Source of the DNA: Devosia submarina
GTDB lineage: Bacteria; Pseudomonadota; Alphaproteobacteria; Rhizobiales; Devosiaceae
Reading direction: 5' to 3'
NCBI RefSeq assembly: GCF_003056345.1
Contig: NZ_PYWB01000008.1
Span: 1-64,000 of the forward strand
DNA length: 64,000 nt
Part shown: in pieces, positions 2,363-10,464 of the stretch
Position numbering within the stretch: position 1 is the first letter of the stretch
Layout: each line of letters opens with the position of its first letter
Program-made: the position numbers and the translations under genes
The notes under the pieces: model-generated
Told to the model about the DNA's origin: nothing
Databases searched by the model: none
What the model saw: only the letters and a program-made list of their open reading frames with translations

Positions 2363-2730
2363 GCGCCGACGAGATCAAGGTCTACATCGCAATTGCCGCA
2401 TCTGTTGTGTCCATACTGGTCGCAGTCGGGGGCTTCCTAAAGTTACGATCTGCCATGGCGGTCACTGAAGCTCCGCAGAAGAAACGTGTCGACGATCTTG
2501 AGCAAGACGTCAAAGACCTGCACACGGAGCTCGGTGGCGTAAAGACAGGCTTGGAAGCAGGTATCAGCAAAGTTCAAGACAGCTTAGCAAGCCTGACTCA
2601 CGCCTTGGGCGAAGTGAAGACAAAGGTCAAAATTCTTTTTGACCGCGACGGACGTGATGAAGCTCGTGCTGCAGCAGCGCAGACCTTCGCTGCCAAGCGG
2701 CCTGGCCGGCCGCGAAAGCCGGTGCCCTGA
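2359..2730 (+). CDS. Small membrane-anchored coiled-coil protein of the phage remnant
   Basis: I chose ATG 2359 (MSADEIKVYIAIAASVV) because it overlaps the stop of the spanin lipoprotein as ATGA; a longer frame from 2302 would run through that gene. The 123-residue product has one membrane segment at about residues 6–27, then a heptad-like region (KKRVDDLEQDVKDLHTELGG) and a basic, Ala-rich tail (AAKRPGRPRKPVP). No family is recognised. Proteins of this build are common beside phage lysis genes. It ends in TGATG, sharing one base with the next start. Confidence 0.55.
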   Translation: MSADEIKVYIAIAASVVSILVAVGGFLKLRSAMAVTEAPQKKRVDDLEQDVKDLHTELGGVKTGLEAGISKVQDSLASLTHALGEVKTKVKILFDRDGRDEARAAAAQTFAAKRPGRPRKPVP

Positions 2731-2930
2731 TGGGTATGGGTCAAGGTTTCGGCGACTGGGGATCGGCGGTGCGGCAAGATCCGTCTGCCATCCTGGTGTT
2801 TCAGATCATCCGAGACTACGGCCTCGAGACCTCGCACGAACGCTGGAGCTGTATACATCCAAAGCGGCTCTACTCCTTGTCCCGAAAGGGTCAACGGCAG
2901 CTGGAGCGAAGGCAGGCAAAGGCGTCCTGA
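2730..2930 (+). CDS. Small protein of unknown function, last gene of the phage remnant
   Basis: A 66-residue frame whose ATG shares its A with the stop of the preceding gene. It has no signal peptide or membrane segment; the C-terminus is basic (SLSRKGQRQLERRQAKAS), which could bind nucleic acid, but no domain is recognised. The overlap is the main support that it is translated. Confidence 0.4.
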   Translation: MGMGQGFGDWGSAVRQDPSAILVFQIIRDYGLETSHERWSCIHPKRLYSLSRKGQRQLERRQAKAS

Positions 2931-3454
2931 GCCTCACTCCCATCATGGCACGACGTATTGGGCCATGATCTCGCAAAGGCGCGCTTCTTCCAAAACACTC
3001 AAGACCATGGCGAGGCGTTCCGTTTTTTTACGGAAGCCAAGAAGACGCGGCGGCTGGCTGAGCTCGTGGGCCACAACGTCGACCACCATCCGAACAGGAG
3101 ACCATGTTGACCCAGGCATTCGGCAAGCCGTTTGGTCGCCCAACCGCCCTCAACCGGCGGAGTGTCGACCAGCTTGAGCTGCATTGTGGGGATGAACTTG
3201 AGTGGTGAGGAATCGAGTGCAGATTCAGAGTCCGCGGACTGTCCGCCTTTTTGCGGGGGCTGGGCTTACGCCCGCCATGGATTACTCGTGTACATACTGG
3301 CTGACTCAATTCGCGTGACGAAATTGGTTCCGGCAAGGATCGGAGAGCTTATCCACAGCCCCAATCCTTCACGACCGGTGCAGGCGTGGAAGATTGGACT
3401 TGCGTCCTAAACGCGTCCTAATCCACGCGATGCTACATTGAGATGGAAAAGGCA
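2931..3454 (+). other. Decayed island DNA without a convincing gene
   Basis: Several short frames exist on both strands, none with a start site, operon context or recognisable motif. The minus-strand frame 2943–3143 (MVVDVVAHELSQPPRLLGF) is the most protein-like, but adjoining frames on that strand break within 100–200 bases. I read this as degraded sequence between the phage remnant and the tRNA gene. No integrase is visible although its usual place would be here. Confidence 0.4.
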
Positions 3455-3482
3455 AGGCCGGAAACCTGAGGATTTCCGGCCT
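3455..3482 (-). terminator. Rho-independent terminator of tRNA-Met
   Basis: A perfect 10-bp inverted repeat (AGGCCGGAAA / TTTCCGGCCT) with an 8-base loop, five bases beyond the CCA end of the tRNA gene; on the minus strand it is followed by a modest T-rich run (CCTTTTCC). Confidence 0.75.
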
Positions 3483-3487
3483 AAATT

Positions 3488-3564
3488 TGGTAGCGAAGCC
3501 CAGATTTGAACTGGGGACACACGGATTATGATTCCGCTGCTCTAACCAACTGAGCTACTCCGCC
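3488..3564 (-). tRNA. tRNA-Met (anticodon CAU, elongator type)
   Basis: The minus strand reads GGCGGAGTAGCTCAGTTGGT at its 5' end and folds into a full cloverleaf: acceptor GGCGGAG with CTTCGCT (one G·U at pair 5–68), D-loop AGTTGGTTAGA, anticodon stem GCGGA/TCCGT around loop ATCATAA, and T-arm CCCAG-TTCAAAT-CTGGG. CCA is encoded. The 5' half matches my memory of rhizobial elongator tRNA-Met rather than initiator tRNA (no run of three G:C pairs in the anticodon stem) or tRNA-Ile2. The T-arm and acceptor 3' strand differ from that memory. The 3' end faces the phage remnant, the usual layout for an integrase target. Confidence 0.9.
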
Positions 3565-3643
3565 TCATAGGCAGCTGGGCGAACCCAACGCTGCGACTTA
3601 CTAATTTTACCACGGGTGCGTGTCAAGTCGCTAGAGCCTTGTT

Positions 3644-5095
3644 TCAATGCCGAGCTTCCAATGCTGTGATCGCATCGCGCACCAGCACCAGATCGGCTTC
3701 GAACTTGGCGCGCTCCAGCGCCTGCTTTTCCCGATCAGGAATGCGCAAGAGATAGGAAGGATGGTTTGTCACGTAAAGGGTCGTGCCATCGTCCATGGTG
3801 ATTGGCGCACCACGCAATTTGCTGATGGTTGCCGTTCGGCCAAGAAGGCTTTGAGCCGCCGTTGCACCGAGCGCTACGATCACCTTGGGCTTGACGAACT
3901 CGATTTCGAGATTAAGCCAGAATCGGCAGGCGGTAATCTCCCCCCCATCGGGCTTCTGGTGAATACGTCGCTTGCCGCGCGGCTCGAACTTGAAGTGCTT
4001 GACCGCGTTCGTCACATACACGCGCGAGCGGTTGATACCGACCTTTTCGACAGCCGCGTCCAGCACCTTACCTGCCGGTCCGACAAACGGCTTGCCCGCC
4101 AGATCTTCCTGATCCCCAGGCTGCTCGCCCACAAACATGACTTGGGCATGTTCCGGCCCCTCGCCAAACACTGCCTGCGTGGCATGTTCGTAAAGCGGGC
4201 AACGCCGGCAACCCTGCACCGCGGCGCGGGCATCGGCCAAGGAAACGATCTCGCTTTCGGCTTCGGGCCTTATATCCTCCCGGGCCTTTTGCCGCACATG
4301 CCGCGATGGCGGCAAACTGGCTACGCGCTCAATCATGTCCTGCTCTGCTTCTCGTGCGCCGCGAATAAGGGGAGCAATGAGTTCGGCCTCGGGCAGGTTG
4401 CGCCAATATTTCACCGGCATCTCTGACTTCATCATCGCGACCTTGAGCCGCGCTGGATTGAAGATGGAGGAGAAATACGTCTTCCAATCGGCCTCGACTG
4501 CATCATCCTCGGGCACATCGGATTTCTGGCCGCCGGGACCGAACGCCAGGCTTTCCCCGTCCCAGAACGCCGATGCATAGGGGGTCACAATGGCCCAGAT
4601 CATGCCGGCGAACCGACGCGCGAAGAATGGTGCAGTCATCTCGAGGCAATAGTGCTCTGGCTCAAACCACGCGGCGAACCGCTCAAGCCCAGTGTCGTCC
4701 CGAATGGATCGGAAGCGCACAAAGGCCTTCATCTTGTGGCTGTCGCGGCGCACGGCACTCGCCAGCCGTACAAGGCGGGTAACATCAGGATCGGACGACA
4801 CTTCCAGAATAGATCGATCCGCCTGCAGCCGCCAGAGCAGGCGGTACAGCAAGGCGAAGCGCTCCGGATCGGAATTGGCGATGGCCGTCCGGGCCAGCTC
4901 GATAAAGGCTGGCGGAACCGATCCAACAGGCTGCTTGCCACTCGGAGGCTCGCCATCCCCACCGAACAGGCCAGCATCGGAGGCCGGATCGCGCCACTCC
5001 ACATCTTCGGGCGCAATGCCCGCCTGCAGCAAACCGCGCGCTGCTTTCCGCCATTCCTCGAAATCGTTTAGCGCCTGTAGGGTGATGGTTTGCAT
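3644..5095 (-). CDS. udgX: UdgX-type uracil-DNA glycosylase fused to a DUF4130 domain
   Basis: Residues 1–260 form the DUF4130/TIGR03915 domain (RLLWRLQADR, FVRFRSIRDD, YCLEMTAPFF). Residues 290–483 are a family-4-like uracil-DNA glycosylase with FVGEQPGDQEDLAGKPFVGP, the UdgX insertion loop GKRRIHQKPDGGE (His 379) and NHPSYLLR. In UdgX, the His of KRRIHQ attacks the uracil-bearing sugar and leaves the enzyme covalently bound to DNA. The 4Fe-4S Cys pair is C296/C299, with C390 further on; no fourth Cys is present in the glycosylase domain, so the cluster may use another ligand. Its ATG overlaps the upstream radical SAM stop as TAATG, so the two are co-translated and share a LexA-box promoter. 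The split into two domains is certain; the partner domain's activity is unknown. Confidence 0.92.
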   Translation of the reverse strand: MQTITLQALNDFEEWRKAARGLLQAGIAPEDVEWRDPASDAGLFGGDGEPPSGKQPVGSVPPAFIELARTAIANSDPERFALLYRLLWRLQADRSILEVSSDPDVTRLVRLASAVRRDSHKMKAFVRFRSIRDDTGLERFAAWFEPEHYCLEMTAPFFARRFAGMIWAIVTPYASAFWDGESLAFGPGGQKSDVPEDDAVEADWKTYFSSIFNPARLKVAMMKSEMPVKYWRNLPEAELIAPLIRGAREAEQDMIERVASLPPSRHVRQKAREDIRPEAESEIVSLADARAAVQGCRRCPLYEHATQAVFGEGPEHAQVMFVGEQPGDQEDLAGKPFVGPAGKVLDAAVEKVGINRSRVYVTNAVKHFKFEPRGKRRIHQKPDGGEITACRFWLNLEIEFVKPKVIVALGATAAQSLLGRTATISKLRGAPITMDDGTTLYVTNHPSYLLRIPDREKQALERAKFEADLVLVRDAITALEARH

Positions 5096-6330
5096 TAAAA
5101 CAGGCTAAGTTGCTCCGGTTGGGGCGTCAGCCTGGCGCGCAGGCGGGCATCGTCTGTGAGCCCGCCCGGTGTCCAATCCACCGCTTCGATGAACGGGCGA
5201 ACCTTGTCGATCGATCCAGCGATCCGCGCAACATCATCAAGCCGCAAGCTATGGTGCCGCCGCGTCTGGATCATCTTGTCGATGCTCTTAATGCCAAGCC
5301 CCGGCACGCGCAGCAGCATTTCCCGATCGGCGCGATTAACATCGACTGGGAAGCGATGGCGGTTCTTGAGCGCCCAGGCGAGCTTCGGATCGACTTGCAG
5401 ATCCAGCAGCCCCCCTTCCCCGCCCGAGACAATCTCGGGCACATCGAAGCCATAAAAGCGGATCAGCCAATCGGCCTGGTAGAGCCGATGCTCGCGCATG
5501 AGCGGTGGCGGCTTGAGCGGCAGGCGGGAGCTTGAATCGGGAATCGGCGAGAAAGCGGAATAGTAAACCCGGCGCAGCTTGTAGCCCGAATAAAGCCCCG
5601 CAGCCCGGTGCAAAATTGCGCCATCGTCAGCACCATCAGCGCCCACGATCATCTGTGTGGATTGGCCTGCCGGTGCAAATTTTTCCGGCTTTGCCTTGGC
5701 CTTTTTCTCCGGCTCGGCTTCATCCAGCTTGCCGCGGACGCGAGCCATGGCGGTGCGAATTTCGCTCGGGTTTTTTTCGGGCGCGAGATCGGCAAGGCCG
5801 ATGTCGGTGGGCATTTCGATGTTGGTGGAGAGCCGGTCCGCCCAGCGGCCGGCTTCGGCAAGGAGTTCGGGCGCGGCGTTGGGGATGAGCTTGAGGTGGA
5901 TATAGCCAGCAAATTTGTGCACCTCGCGCAGGGTGCGCGCGACGCGGACCAGTTCCTCCATTGTATAGTCGGGCGAACGGATAATGCCCGAGGACAGGAA
6001 CAGGCCTTCGATGTAATTTCGCTTGTAAAAATCAAGGGTTAGCTGCACCACCTCTTCCACGGAAAAGCGAGCGCGCTGCACGTTGGACGACGAGCGATTG
6101 ACGCAGTAAACGCAGTCATAAACGCAGAAATTGGTCAGCAGGATCTTGAGCAGGCTGATGCAGCGACCGTCTGGCGCATAGGAGTGGCAGATGCCGCTGC
6201 CCTCGGTTGACCCTATGCCGCCAGTGCCCGCGCTGGAGCGTTTTTCCGTCCCGCTTGAAGCGCAGGAGGCGTCGTATTTGGCAGCGTCAGACAGGATAGC
6301 GAGCTTGCGGCGGAGTGACAGAACGGTCAT
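5095..6330 (-). CDS. Radical SAM protein linked to UdgX (putative DNA modification/repair)
   Basis: The family (TIGR03916) is known to travel with UdgX–DUF4130 proteins; its reaction is not established. The protein has the cluster motif CVYDCVYC (CxxxCxxC) for the 4Fe-4S centre that cleaves S-adenosylmethionine, the barrel motif LFLSSGIIRSPDYTMEELV, and a C-terminal helix-hairpin-helix (LLRVPGLGIKSIDKMIQTRR) that fits DNA binding. I chose ATG 6330 (MTVLSLRRKLAIL) instead of ATG 6345, because the latter lies inside the LexA box and would place the operator within the gene. First gene of the two-gene operon ending with udgX. Confidence 0.9.
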   Translation of the reverse strand: MTVLSLRRKLAILSDAAKYDASCASSGTEKRSSAGTGGIGSTEGSGICHSYAPDGRCISLLKILLTNFCVYDCVYCVNRSSSNVQRARFSVEEVVQLTLDFYKRNYIEGLFLSSGIIRSPDYTMEELVRVARTLREVHKFAGYIHLKLIPNAAPELLAEAGRWADRLSTNIEMPTDIGLADLAPEKNPSEIRTAMARVRGKLDEAEPEKKAKAKPEKFAPAGQSTQMIVGADGADDGAILHRAAGLYSGYKLRRVYYSAFSPIPDSSSRLPLKPPPLMREHRLYQADWLIRFYGFDVPEIVSGGEGGLLDLQVDPKLAWALKNRHRFPVDVNRADREMLLRVPGLGIKSIDKMIQTRRHHSLRLDDVARIAGSIDKVRPFIEAVDWTPGGLTDDARLRARLTPQPEQLSLF

Positions 6331-6335
6331 TAAGT

Positions 6336-6350
6336 GTTCACCCATTGTTC
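6336..6350 (-). promoter_or_regulatory. LexA (SOS) box GTTC-N7-GTTC
   Basis: The plus strand has GTTC at 6336–6339 and again at 6347–6350, seven bases apart, a perfect alphaproteobacterial SOS operator. It ends six bases upstream of the chosen radical SAM start, where a repressor would block transcription of the radical SAM–udgX operon after DNA damage is absent. A divergent effect on the VOC gene (start 6547) is less likely at that distance. Confidence 0.75.
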
Positions 6351-7563: not shown

Positions 7564-7875
7564 ATGGCCGCCATCATCAAAACGATTATCGGCTCGGTGC
7601 CCCATCTTCTGCTCGGGGCGGCCCTGCTGCTTTATGTGCCCTGGACGCTGGGCATTCCCGGCACGCCAGATGCCGACTATGCGGATGGCTGGTATATCGG
7701 GTTCTACGGGATCAACTTCTTTATCGCTGTTTATGCCATTCTGGGCGTGCTCGGCGTTATTTCGCGCTTCAACTGGCTCCCCATTCCTTTTCGCTGGATC
7801 AGGCTAGGGCTCTGGTGCAGCGCCGGCGCCTTTGCACTTGCCATGGCAATCGCCATCTACGCCGTCCTTAATTGA
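7564..7875 (+). CDS. Small integral membrane protein of unknown function
   Basis: ATG 7564 (MAAIIKTIIGSVPHLLLGAA) has GGGGAG seven bases upstream and is preferred to a TTG at 7552. The 103-residue protein has three hydrophobic segments, about residues 8–27, 44–66 and 78–101, with short polar loops (PGTPDADYADGW; FRWIRLG). No family motif is recognised. It converges with the VWA gene; the two 3' ends overlap by 8 bases, so readthrough would make antisense RNA. Confidence 0.7.
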   Translation: MAAIIKTIIGSVPHLLLGAALLLYVPWTLGIPGTPDADYADGWYIGFYGINFFIAVYAILGVLGVISRFNWLPIPFRWIRLGLWCSAGAFALAMAIAIYAVLN

Positions 7876-9895
7876 CGGCAGGCACTGCATCGGGCTTCAG
7901 CGCCTTGGCCGTTTGCACCAATTGCAAAAATTCGTTGCGATAGCCGCTTTCATCCGTGCCGCGGCCAGATCGCGCCAGCGCAGCAATGGCGTCCCAGCTC
8001 ATTTCGCCGCTGTAATTGCTTCCTCGCAGTTTCTGCCCAAAGGCGGCAATGGCTGCAGCGAAGCGCATGTCATCGCTTGCTTGAGCGATATCGGAATGGA
8101 CCATGTCGGACGTAATGGGCTGCTCGATGAGTTGGCTGACCTCACTCTGGGGCAGCTTGTAGCGCAGACGAAGGAACGCCCATTCCCCCGAGCGTGCAAT
8201 GGGTTGGCTGGCGGAACCATAGCGCAGCGGATCAACCAGTTCGCCACCAGATCCAACAGGCGTGATTTCATAAAGCGCGGTGACACTGTGGCCTGCACCG
8301 ATGTCGCCAGCATCGACCTTGTCATTGTTGAAATCCTCGCGGTTGAGGGCCCGCGTCTCATAGCCGATCAACCGGTACTCGCTGACCATTGCCGGGTTGA
8401 ACTCCACCTGGATCTTGACGTCCTTGGCAATCATTTCGAGCGTGCCGCCAATCTCCTGGACGAGCACCTTCTGGGCCTCGCGGAAATCGCTGATGTAGCT
8501 GGCATTGCCGTTCCCGTTCTGCGCCAGCGCCTGCATGGTATCATCGCCCAGATTGCCCCGCCCGAAGCCAAGTACGGACAAAGTGATGCCACTGTCGCGC
8601 CTGGCCTTGATGAAGTCCTCGAGCTGTTCGGGGTCCTCGATCCCGACATTGAAGTCGCCATCGGTGGCCAGGATCACCCGATTGGTGCCATCAGCAACCT
8701 TGTGCTGTTCAGCAAGGCGATAGGCCAGCTCGATCCCGTCGGCGCCAGCAGTGCTGCCGCCGGCCCATAGATTGTCCAGCGCTTGGAGGATCGTCGCCTT
8801 GTTCGTGGCCGCGGTGGGCTCCAGCGCCACGCCAGCCGACCCGGCATAGGTCACAATCGATATGGTGTCATTGGCCGAGAGTTGATCAAGCAAAAGCGCA
8901 AAGGCGCGTTTCAGCAACGGCAGCTTGTCCGGTTCATCCATGGACCCTGACGTATCGATCAGGAACACCAGATTAGCCGGCTTGTCTTCCCCAGCGGGAG
9001 GGACATGGCCCTTGATTCCAATCTGCAGCAATTGCGTCCGCGTATTCCACGGCGTGGGATAGATCGCAATGGTCGGCTGGAAAGGCACAGCAGCGTCTTG
9101 GGCAGCCGGATAGTCATAGGGGAAATAGTTGATCATCTCCTCGATGCGCACGGCGTCTGGCTCGGGCAAGAAGCCGTCTTCCAGCATGCTGCGCATATAG
9201 GAATAGCTCGCCGTATCCACATCGATCGAAAAGGTGGAGACGGGCTCCTCGGCCACGAGCTTGAGACGCTGTTCCTCAAAAGAGGTGAACTGATCGCCGG
9301 CAGGCAGGGGCGGCACTACCACCATGTCGCTCATTGGCGCAAAGCTGGTCGTTGGCACTTCCATGGCCGCCCCACCCTGGCTCAGCATGGGTGCGGGTGC
9401 GACCGGAGGTGGTGGCGCCGGCATGGATTCCATCATCGCGGCGCTGTCGGCCGCAGTTCCAATCTCGCTTTCCAATGGCTCTGGCGCGGCGGGTGCCTGG
9501 GTCCGACTGTCCTGCGGCTGCTTGGCGAGGTCCTGGCGAGGTGGAGGTACCTGCGCGGGGGCTGGCGCAGTCGTTTCGCTGATCGGCGAGGGCACCTGGG
9601 TCATCGATGTGGTGAGATAAAGCTGATAGCCAAGTGGCAGCACAAGCAATGCAATAGCCGCTGTGCCGATAGGCAGACGCATATCCATGATCGTTTTCCC
9701 TCCGGGGAAGTTGATGATGGATTTAAGACGCCGGCCCCAAGGATTTCCTTTGGGAGCATTGACGGTTTTTGCGGCTGAATTCTCGAACGCTGCCATTCCC
9801 GCAGCCAAGGCGGCCTGGCGCGCTTCAGCTCGCGCTGGCGGCACGCTTGTGTCCTTGAGGCGGTTCAGCGGATCGCCGGGCATGTCATTGCTCAT
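7868..9895 (-). CDS. Membrane-anchored von Willebrand factor A protein (YfbK family)
   Basis: A 675-residue protein: an N-terminal cytoplasmic segment (1–73), one membrane span at about 74–94 (TAAIALLVLPLGYQLYL), a Pro/Ala/Gln-rich linker to about 200, then the YfbK-type N-terminal region (VSTFSIDVDTASYSYMRSML), a VWA domain with the metal-binding motif DTSGS at 314–318 (NLVFLIDTSGSMDEPDKL), and the C-terminal YfbK domain. VWA domains bind protein partners through a divalent metal. The start overlaps the end of the ECF sigma gene as ATGA, so the two are coupled. The topology, a short cytoplasmic head and a large periplasmic sensor, resembles a transmembrane anti-sigma factor; this role is inference. 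Confidence 0.9.
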   Translation of the reverse strand: MSNDMPGDPLNRLKDTSVPPARAEARQAALAAGMAAFENSAAKTVNAPKGNPWGRRLKSIINFPGGKTIMDMRLPIGTAAIALLVLPLGYQLYLTTSMTQVPSPISETTAPAPAQVPPPRQDLAKQPQDSRTQAPAAPEPLESEIGTAADSAAMMESMPAPPPPVAPAPMLSQGGAAMEVPTTSFAPMSDMVVVPPLPAGDQFTSFEEQRLKLVAEEPVSTFSIDVDTASYSYMRSMLEDGFLPEPDAVRIEEMINYFPYDYPAAQDAAVPFQPTIAIYPTPWNTRTQLLQIGIKGHVPPAGEDKPANLVFLIDTSGSMDEPDKLPLLKRAFALLLDQLSANDTISIVTYAGSAGVALEPTAATNKATILQALDNLWAGGSTAGADGIELAYRLAEQHKVADGTNRVILATDGDFNVGIEDPEQLEDFIKARRDSGITLSVLGFGRGNLGDDTMQALAQNGNGNASYISDFREAQKVLVQEIGGTLEMIAKDVKIQVEFNPAMVSEYRLIGYETRALNREDFNNDKVDAGDIGAGHSVTALYEITPVGSGGELVDPLRYGSASQPIARSGEWAFLRLRYKLPQSEVSQLIEQPITSDMVHSDIAQASDDMRFAAAIAAFGQKLRGSNYSGEMSWDAIAALARSGRGTDESGYRNEFLQLVQTAKALKPDAVPAVN

Positions 9896-10464
9896 AGCAA
9901 GCCCCTCAGGGTTTTGCGTGCCTCATGCACATGAAACGACACGGTGGCTTCCTTGATGTTCATGATTTCGGCGGCTGCTGCATGGCTCAGCTCTTCGGCA
10001 TAAACCAGCAAGACCGCGTCGCGCTGCTTTTCCGGCAGTCGGCGCACCGCTGCCCAGAGCTGCTTGCTGGTCGCGGCTTCTTCCTGGTCCGCTGGATGCT
10101 CGTCGGGTGTTATTTGCCGCAAGGCATCAACATGGCGTCCTCGCCGCTGGCGCGACCGCTGAAGATCGCGAACGGCATTGAGCGTGATGCGATACACCCA
10201 GCTCGAAAAAGCACTGCGCCCATCAAAGCCCGCAATGGCCTGCCCCAGCTTGATGCAGACATCCTGCGCCACGTCCTCGGCATCATCGCCATTGCCGCAC
10301 CATTTCCAGGCCGTGCGGTAAATGCGCTCGTAATGCTGTTCCAGCAACAGGGCGAAAGCCTGCCCATCGCCATTGCGCGCGCGCACCACCAGCGCCTGCG
10401 TGATGGCCTGTGCATGGTCGATCGTTTCTGCGGCAGTCCCATCCATCGCCGGCGCATGCACCAC
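9892..10464 (-). CDS. ECF RNA polymerase sigma factor
   Basis: 190 residues with region 2 (RIYRTAWKWCGNGDDAEDVA, then QDVCIKL and FSSWVYRITLNAVRDLQR) and region 4 (LPEKQRDAVLLVYAEELSHA, AAEIMNIKEATVSFHVHEARKTL), the helix-turn-helix for the −35 element. A start at the second Met (10446) is also possible. It is the first gene of a two-gene operon with the VWA protein and is divergent from a small membrane-protein gene at 10554. ECF factors are normally held by a co-transcribed anti-sigma factor; the only partner here is the VWA protein. Confidence 0.92.
   Translation of the reverse strand: MVHAPAMDGTAAETIDHAQAITQALVVRARNGDGQAFALLLEQHYERIYRTAWKWCGNGDDAEDVAQDVCIKLGQAIAGFDGRSAFSSWVYRITLNAVRDLQRSRQRRGRHVDALRQITPDEHPADQEEAATSKQLWAAVRRLPEKQRDAVLLVYAEELSHAAAAEIMNIKEATVSFHVHEARKTLRGLL

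What the first reader, a model, noticed from the sequence alone, without database searches (positions are those of the whole stretch)
3644..6350. SOS-controlled radical SAM–UdgX-DUF4130 repair operon
A perfect LexA box stands six bases before the radical SAM gene, which overlaps the UdgX fusion as TAATG. UdgX is the glycosylase that stays covalently bound to its product, while the radical SAM enzyme and DUF4130 domain have no known reaction. Damage induction plus strict coupling suggests that these two handle the covalent intermediate or a modified uracil.
Basis: partly seen in the sequence, partly recalled or inferred. Interest (0 to 1): 0.55.

Follow-up and report, generated by a model that had tools for sequence, protein, structure and literature searches.

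The report
SOS-induced radical-SAM DNA repair operon
Two overlapping bacterial genes, predicted to be switched on by DNA damage, encode a radical-chemistry enzyme that carries a replication-clamp docking signal and a partner protein fused to a uracil-trapping glycosylase; the gene pair and its damage control were known, but the docking signal and the finding that the glycosylase is optional point to what the pair does.

Summary
The radical SAM gene (TIGR03916) overlaps a DUF4130-UdgX fusion as TAATG. The bare GAAC-N7-GAAC pattern is at chance in this genome. Yet it precedes this gene in 96 of 100 (almost all alphaproteobacterial) loci, against 19 of 2,922 control windows, and lexA, recA and uvrA/ssb here. 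Outside the class, 16 of 20 loci carry the E. coli-type box. SOS control of this operon is already published.

Handling the UdgX-DNA adduct is not supported as the general role. Radical SAM and DUF4130 occur in the same 22 of 121 order genomes. UdgX is below cut-off genome-wide in 17 other genomes with both; six order genomes have UdgX without the pair. UdgX is an add-on; its cross-linking His is kept in 97 of 98, the exception being a decayed domain.

The radical SAM protein ends in a beta-clamp-binding peptide (here QLSLF; relaxed form in 99 of 102 tails) that my paper searches did not find described, and has three extra invariant cysteines (134 of 134). Most likely it is a damage-induced, clamp-recruited radical DNA-repair enzyme of unknown substrate.

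The parts
6336..6350 (-). LexA operator, direct repeat GAAC-N7-GAAC, 5 bases before the likely start codon
   Evidence: conserved in 96 of 100 loci; same box type before lexA, recA, uvrA/ssb in this genome
5095..6330 (-). radical SAM protein, 411 aa, TIGR03916 (rSAM_link_UDG)
   Evidence: model pLDDT 84.6
6160..6264 (-). region with extra invariant Cys23, Cys48, Cys57 (and His49): candidate ligands of an auxiliary Fe-S cluster (inferred)
   Evidence: 134 of 134 loci; absent in a divergent paralogue; nearest folds lipoyl synthase and HydE
6103..6126 (-). CX3CX2C radical-SAM cluster motif, aa 69-76
5191..5361 (-). probable ComEA-like helix-hairpin-helix DNA-binding domain, about aa 324-380
   Evidence: profile match to 2duy/8dss, E 0.012-0.019; Pfam HHH_5 and HHH_3 below cut-off
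5098..5112 (-). C-terminal beta-clamp-binding motif QLSLF, aa 407-411
   Evidence: relaxed 99 of 102, strict 60 of 102; pLDDT of residues 407-411 below 50; consensus QLxLF / QL(S/D)LF in PMC4549789 and PMC9690074 (passages)
3644..5095 (-). DUF4130-UdgX fusion, 483 aa
4385..5068 (-). DUF4130 / TIGR03915 domain, aa 10-237; fold resembles RecJ/Cdc45-type DHH-DHHA1 proteins (weak)
   Evidence: model pLDDT 88.1; no sequence support
3683..4381 (-). UdgX domain, aa 239-471
   Evidence: TIGR03914 330.5 bits; phmmer to UdgX crystal structures, E 1.6e-52
3959..3973 (-). UdgX R-loop KRRIH with the cross-linking His
   Evidence: His in 97 of 98 UdgX domains; R-loop KRRIH described in the abstract of PMC10359453 (start of abstract)

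Best explanation
This is a LexA-repressed DNA-repair operon whose obligate core is a radical SAM enzyme plus DUF4130. After DNA damage LexA is cleaved and both are made in a coupled way. The radical SAM enzyme binds DNA through its helix-hairpin-helix domain and docks on the replication clamp through its C-terminal QLSLF peptide, so it works at stalled forks, gaps or repair patches. There it carries out a radical reaction on a damaged nucleotide or DNA adduct, with DUF4130 as its obligate nucleic-acid-binding partner. In many Proteobacteria UdgX was fused to DUF4130: it excises uracil and stays covalently on the abasic site, capping the site and holding the complex there. Supported by comparison: SOS operators, obligate pairing, the motifs, UdgX being optional. 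Inferred: clamp binding, a second Fe-S cluster, action on DNA, DUF4130 as a binding partner, and the tethering role of UdgX. The chemical substrate is not determined.
For: SOS operators of unlike sequence in different clades (gram-positive-like boxes seen by eye in L158 and L161), and papers for Bacteroidetes, Verrucomicrobia, Alphaproteobacteria (passages) and Clostridium acetobutylicum (passage). rSAM and DUF4130 occur in the same 22 of 121 genomes and are adjacent, with no glycosylase beside them, in Bacteroidota and Bacillota records. Clamp motif in the last 60 residues: strict 60 of 102 against a mean of 0.17 (largest 3) in 500 shuffles; relaxed 99 of 102 against 12.8 (largest 21). Profile match to ComEA HhH. 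UdgX His kept in 97 of 98. In Xanthomonadaceae-type genomes the operon shares an operator with helicase, recA and uvrA genes.
Against: No experiment here: LexA binding, clamp binding and catalysis are all unproven. The HhH match is weak by sequence (E 0.012). The relaxed clamp motif also occurs elsewhere in 49 of the same 102 proteins (the strict form in none), and in 6 of the 99 tails it lies 15-46 residues from the end, where it may be chance. The radical SAM fold is nearest lipoyl synthase and HydE, which do not act on DNA. Sequences are mostly Proteobacteria, so counts are not independent events. 4 of 100 and 4 of 20 loci lack the expected box. Six of the 100 loci have a gap of about 0.3-1.3 kb between the two genes, so translational coupling is not universal. 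One fused UdgX domain is decayed (L143).
Confidence: 0.5

Rival explanations
1. One reading: the radical SAM enzyme and DUF4130 resolve or process the covalent UdgX-DNA adduct, or act on a modified uracil.
For: Fusion of DUF4130 to UdgX in most of the 100 loci; cross-linking His kept in 97 of 98; in the order, all 22 rSAM+DUF4130 genomes also have UdgX over the cut-off.
Against: 17 rSAM+DUF4130 genomes lack UdgX over the cut-off anywhere (6, 11), and 5 of the 6 and 10 of the 11 still carry a LexA-type box; 6 of 28 UdgX genomes in the order lack the pair. PMC10359453 (passage) names RecA-dependent pathways and proteases as possible resolvers.
Confidence: 0.12
2. Plain base-excision view from the literature: an SOS-induced uracil-DNA-glycosylase repair system that deals with nucleotides misinserted by SOS polymerases; the radical SAM gene is accessory.
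For: Proposed in PMC8565304 (passages), which speaks of ribonucleotide misincorporation.
Against: The glycosylase is the optional part; the radical SAM + DUF4130 pair persists and mostly keeps SOS boxes without it.
Confidence: 0.1
3. A sulfur-inserting or otherwise base-modifying radical enzyme with two Fe-S clusters, related in chemistry to lipoyl or biotin synthase, which modifies DNA bases during the damage response rather than reversing damage.
For: Nearest solved folds are lipoyl synthase (Z 17.4, 228 aligned, 3.2 A) and HydE (Z 16.7, 222 aligned, 3.7 A); three further invariant Cys upstream of the radical SAM cluster, 134 of 134.
Against: The spacing of the extra Cys (C-X24-C-X8-C in the window protein) is not the lipoyl synthase spacing as I recall it (CX4CX5C, from memory); many radical SAM enzymes share the core fold (257 chains at Z 8 or more).
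Confidence: 0.13
4. Direct reversal of a specific lesion, as spore photoproduct lyase does for a UV product.
For: [quoted passage not shown] probable HhH.
Against: SplB is a different orthologous group (COG1533 versus COG4277 in PMC8565304); spore photoproduct lyase is not among the 50 rows listed, which does not exclude it.
Confidence: 0.15

Closest known systems
NCBIfam trio TIGR03916 / TIGR03915 / TIGR03914 (rSAM_link_UDG, SAM_7_link_chp, UDG_fam_dom)
   Same: All three models hit over their cut-offs; the short names of the first two record this linkage.
   Different: Nothing in kind; the window is a further member. The clamp motif, extra cysteines and optional nature of UdgX are not in the model names and descriptions shown.
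SOS-regulated COG1573-COG4277 operon (Bacteroidetes, Verrucomicrobia, Caulobacter)
   Same: A two-gene operon with a uracil-DNA glycosylase under LexA-type control (PMC8565304, passages; it cites a 2016 Verrucomicrobia and a 2008 Caulobacter paper, neither read here). That COG4277 is the radical SAM gene is my recollection, not a call.
   Different: Those authors treat it as glycosylase-based base excision; here the obligate unit is radical SAM + DUF4130.
CAC3343-CAC3344 of Clostridium acetobutylicum
   Different: No glycosylase is named in that operon; whether CAC3344 is DUF4130 was not tested here.
UdgX (solved structures 6ail, 6ajo and others; from Mycobacterium smegmatis, by recollection)
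   Same: phmmer E 1.6e-52; GEQPG, KRRIH and HPS motifs present.
   Different: The solved proteins are UdgX alone (about 210 residues); here it is fused behind DUF4130.
Spore photoproduct lyase / SplB
   Same: Radical SAM protein linked to DNA damage and to SOS control in several species (PMC8565304, passage).
   Different: Different orthologous group and not in the match lists seen.

Membership tests
TIGR03916 (rSAM_link_UDG) | Score over the curated cut-off across nearly the full model | tested here: met
   554.5 bits, cut-off 343.5, positions 1-399 of 415
TIGR03916 (rSAM_link_UDG) | Paired with DUF4130/TIGR03915 | tested here: met
   Adjacent here; same 22 of 121 order genomes
UdgX (TIGR03914) | Score over cut-off, GEQPG motif A, KRRIH R-loop with cross-linking His, HPS motif B | tested here: met
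   motifs from the start of the abstract of PMC10359453
UdgX (TIGR03914) | Forms a covalent bond with the abasic product | not testable with these tools
   Needs biochemistry
LexA (SOS) regulon | Operator of the organism's own type at the promoter, conserved in relatives | tested here: met
LexA (SOS) regulon | LexA binding and damage induction | not testable with these tools
   Needs EMSA and expression data
beta-clamp-binding proteins | C-terminal QLxLF-type peptide in a flexible tail | tested here: met
   QLSLF at the very C-terminus; residues 407-411 pLDDT under 50
beta-clamp-binding proteins | Measured binding to the clamp | not testable with these tools
   Needs pull-down or structure
DHH/DHHA1 superfamily (RecJ, Cdc45, NrnA) for DUF4130 | Fold match | tested here: inconclusive
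   Foldseek none at E<=0.001; the VIA-align rows are mostly DHH-type proteins but Z is at most 7.8, within the range the tool calls unspecific
DHH/DHHA1 superfamily (RecJ, Cdc45, NrnA) for DUF4130 | Sequence-profile similarity to RecJ or DHHA1 | tested here: not met
   hhalign probability 0.2%, no better than controls; no DHHA1 hit among 51 members
Spore photoproduct lyase (SplB) | Structural match above other radical SAM enzymes | tested here: inconclusive
   Not among the 50 rows listed; absence there excludes nothing

The most novel reading that the evidence does not exclude
A replication-clamp-targeted radical SAM enzyme: the TIGR03916 protein is recruited to the sliding clamp during the SOS response and, with DUF4130 and a second Fe-S cluster, carries out a radical reaction on damaged DNA at forks or gaps. 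UdgX is a lineage-specific covalent anchor that pins this complex to uracil-derived abasic sites.
Probability: 0.35. Interest if true: 0.8.

Novelty: new member of a known kind. Interest (0 to 1): 0.5.

Why it matters
The radical SAM-DUF4130 pair was found over the cut-off in 22 of 121 order genomes and its radical SAM half in 53 of 299 phylum genomes, yet I know of no reaction for it. Showing that it is the obligate SOS-controlled unit, and that the radical enzyme ends in a clamp-binding peptide, turns a vague 'putative DNA repair' label into tests that can be done now: clamp pull-down, tail deletion, and damage phenotypes in a genome that lacks UdgX. If true, it would add a radical-chemistry enzyme to the clamp-associated repair toolkit and give UdgX a biological setting.

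Tried and rejected
Box by itself: rejected as evidence, since the bare pattern is at or below chance in window and genome. DUF4130 as a DHH nuclease: the list of structural matches is dominated by DHH-type proteins, but there is no sequence support and Z is below 8. Of the residues conserved in 90 of 90 DUF4130 sequences (R127, F128, P146, R161, W204, R216, P227, E236) none is Asp or His, although D102 and H120 are invariant in the 51 sequences of alignment A4 and kept in 83 and 84 of the 90. I keep the DHH likeness as a weak hint of a nucleic-acid-binding fold. Anti-phage defence: no PADLOC hit for either protein. Viral contigs: two scans with single proteins, which find close relatives only, gave none. 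Ten phage records hold relatives: eight 'Bacteriophage sp.' records and two labelled Acinetobacter phage. Four of the eight were fetched (L159-L162) and used as sequences; whether they are true phages was not asked. Spore photoproduct lyase membership: inconclusive. A divergent paralogue in Gemmatirosa (L061) has the radical SAM cluster but not the extra Cys. Papers: the Verrucomicrobia 2016 paper is not held, and the Caulobacter 2008 paper was seen only as a reference. Searches that showed me no paper on this family and the clamp: 35 papers matched, 20 listed; 6 papers, by family names; only the PMC open library was searched.

Selections and rows dropped before counts. One search parsed 21 of 22 loci; L002 was missed by a pattern and has the box. 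The clamp count used 102 of 115 parsed sequences, after removing near-duplicates, of 117 loci. The Cys count was first made on sequences picked by a pattern that contains Cys57; one search repeats it on all 134 loci given, without that pattern. The DUF4130 conservation set (90) was in part picked by patterns covering residues 125-128 and 226-231, so the conservation of R127, F128, P227 and W231 is in part by selection. The UdgX His count took the 97 of 105 loci with a recognisable motif A; of the other 8, seven have no fused UdgX and L143 has a decayed one without the His, hence 97 of 98. In some searches some loci were missed by pattern; one search covers all 20. In one search L241 shows no DUF4130, but its genome has UdgX over the cut-off near the radical SAM gene, so it is not among the 11 genomes said to lack UdgX. 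Two of the six alpha genomes without UdgX (L125, L135) are metagenome assemblies and may be incomplete.
Full report
What is there. The minus strand of 3644-6350 carries a LexA-type direct repeat (6336-6350), a radical SAM gene (5095-6330) and, overlapping by one base as TAATG, a gene for a DUF4130-UdgX fusion (3644-5095). The box stands five bases before the likely ATG, not six; another in-frame ATG at 6345 lies within the box. [quoted passage not shown] The short names rSAM_link_UDG and SAM_7_link_chp record that these genes go together. The closest relative seen, 82% identical, is in a Devosia metagenome-assembled genome, so the host is probably a Devosia or near it (inference).

Is the LexA box real? 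On its own it proves nothing: GAAC-N7-GAAC occurs once in the window with 1.61 expected and 117 times in the genome against 147 for the reversed control. I looked at 10 further genomic sites, chosen by eye for AT-rich spacers. Three of the ten places lie before SOS genes: two boxes before lexA, two between uvrA and ssb, one before recA (names confirmed by family models). The other seven showed no SOS gene that I recognised. In relatives, a 250-nt window ending at an anchor about ten codons inside the gene holds the box in 96 of 100 loci; no other spacing exceeds 5 of 100 for any pattern tried. Control windows of the same size from the same loci hold it in 19 of 2,922 cases. In L158 (Lachnospira eligens plasmid) and L161 (a fecal 'Bacteriophage sp.' record) gram-positive-like sequences such as CGAACAAATGTTT stand upstream; these were seen by eye and not tested. 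Different operators at the same gene in different clades argue for selected damage control.

What is the unit? In 121 genomes of the order, radical SAM (over its cut-off) and DUF4130 are found in exactly the same 22 genomes. UdgX over its cut-off is in 28: those 22 and six more, one of which keeps only short remnants at the operon site. Among the 100 loci, six carry a standalone DUF4130 (PF13566), and their genomes have no UdgX over the cut-off; a Pseudoxanthomonas with a standalone DUF4130 has UdgX at another place. Of 12 genomes outside the class checked because no fusion was seen, 11 have no UdgX over the cut-off, and all 11 have TIGR03915 over its cut-off next to the radical SAM gene; the twelfth does have UdgX. 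Bacteroides, Parabacteroides, Spirosoma, Pusillibacter and Lachnospira plasmid records show radical SAM next to 'TIGR03915 family putative DNA repair protein' with no glycosylase beside them; their chromosomes were not searched. The control genome Bacteroides ihuae has both proteins and no TIGR03914 match (controls). So radical SAM + DUF4130 is the obligate pair and UdgX is optional. The genes are not always contiguous: in six of the 100 loci about 0.3-1.3 kb separates them, and in an Azospirillum plasmid a TnpB-family gene does. Where UdgX is present its cross-linking His is kept in 97 of 98; the exception (L143) has also lost motif A and motif B, that is, a decayed domain.

What does the radical SAM protein carry? 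(1) The CX3CX2C motif. (2) Three further Cys (23, 48, 57) and His49, invariant in 134 of 134 loci and absent in a divergent paralogue; their place upstream of the radical SAM cluster suggests a second cluster (inference). (3) A helix-hairpin-helix region matching ComEA by profile, E 0.012-0.019. (4) A C-terminal tail ending in QLSLF. Across 102 sequences left after removing near-duplicates, the last 60 residues hold Q[LMIF]x[LMFI] in 99 (shuffles: mean 12.8, largest 21 of 102) and the strict Q[LM][SDE]L[FL] in 60 (shuffles: mean 0.17, largest 3). In 93 of the 99 the motif lies within seven residues of the end; in six it lies 15-46 residues away. The strict form occurs nowhere else in these proteins, the relaxed form elsewhere in 49. 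Of the three exceptions two are Xanthomonad tails with QASLF and QADLF. The tail is disordered in the model. This is the published beta-clamp-binding consensus, QLxLF at the C-terminus (PMC4549789, passages; PMC9690074, passages). My searches showed no paper that connects this family with the clamp.

Folds. The radical SAM model (pLDDT 84.6) is nearest lipoyl synthase (4u0o, Z 17.4, 228 aligned, 3.2 A) and HydE (Z 16.7, 222 aligned, 3.7 A); Foldseek itself ranks HydE first. DUF4130 (pLDDT 88.1) gives no Foldseek match at E 0.001 or better. The second-look list is mostly DHH/DHHA1-type proteins (RecJ Z 7.5, 178 aligned, 4.0 A; Cdc45; family II pyrophosphatases), but with Z at most 7.8 and no sequence support. 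Its residues conserved in 90 of 90 are R127, F128, P146, R161, W204, R216, P227 and E236, part of which reflects how sequences were picked; D102 and H120 are nearly as conserved. I read this as binding rather than metal-ion catalysis (inference, weak).

How it probably works. After damage LexA falls off and the pair is made, translationally coupled here. The radical SAM enzyme binds DNA and docks on the clamp, and performs a radical reaction on a lesion with DUF4130's help. In lineages with the fusion, UdgX excises uracil, stays bound, and thereby caps the site and may hold the complex there. Which lesion is acted on is open.

What was known. An SOS-controlled COG1573-COG4277 operon with a uracil-DNA glycosylase is described for Bacteroidetes and attributed to earlier work in Verrucomicrobia and Alphaproteobacteria/Caulobacter (PMC8565304, passages). 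A radical SAM-unknown pair is a putative LexA target in Clostridium acetobutylicum (PMC3828012, passage). DUF4130 is noted beside SplB-like radical SAM proteins and glycosylases (PMC3765255, figure legend). A gene annotated with this name rises on severe desiccation, as recA does, in Acinetobacter (PMC13130816, passages).

A side result. 29 of the 49 lie just upstream of repair genes: 15 HRQ1-like helicases, 10 radical SAM operons (three of them the loci from which the motif was drawn), 2 recA, 1 uvrA, 1 further helicase called Lhr-like by eye; 20 are unassigned. RecA and UvrA are confirmed by family models, while the HRQ1 label rests on helicase domains plus a winged-helix match below its cut-off. 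This looks like an undescribed damage operator (not checked in print beyond) and ties the operon to lesion repair again.

Noticed in passing
Xanthomonadaceae-type loci L247-L295 (e.g. L249, L250, L248, L259): Palindrome GTCTCA-N5-TGAGAC precedes this operon, HRQ1-like helicase, recA and uvrA genes: 29 of 49 sites lie before repair genes. Possible undescribed DNA-damage operator; regulator not sought.
   Followed up: partly
G050 contig C1 4965980-4966266 (L024): Remnant of the operon in a relative: model positions 1-39 of the radical SAM gene lie next to positions 178-230 of UdgX, with a separate UdgX elsewhere, which looks like an internal deletion.
   Followed up: no
L143 (Acetobacter nitrogenifigens), downstream of the radical SAM gene: Fused UdgX-like domain that has lost motif A, the cross-linking His and motif B, while the DUF4130 part in front still matches its family: UdgX decaying behind a kept partner.
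   Followed up: partly
L163 (Azospirillum plasmid): A TnpB-family gene sits between the radical SAM gene and the UdgX fusion on the opposite strand; both parts are kept.
   Followed up: no
window 3488-3564: tRNA-Met gene directly downstream of the operon; the one congener and two other family members in the order sample lack the radical SAM gene, so local gain or loss at this spot is possible.
   Followed up: no
L061 (Gemmatirosa plasmid) 2497-4098: A divergent relative of the radical SAM protein with an HhH-like region and a QLSLW near its end (by eye) but without the three extra Cys; the next ORF on that strand is not DUF4130-like by eye. Possibly a separate clamp-associated radical SAM family.
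   Followed up: partly
window 7868-10464 (-): Neighbouring ORFs read by eye only: a von Willebrand-type membrane protein with an upstream sigma-factor-like gene; I saw nothing that links them to the operon.
   Followed up: no
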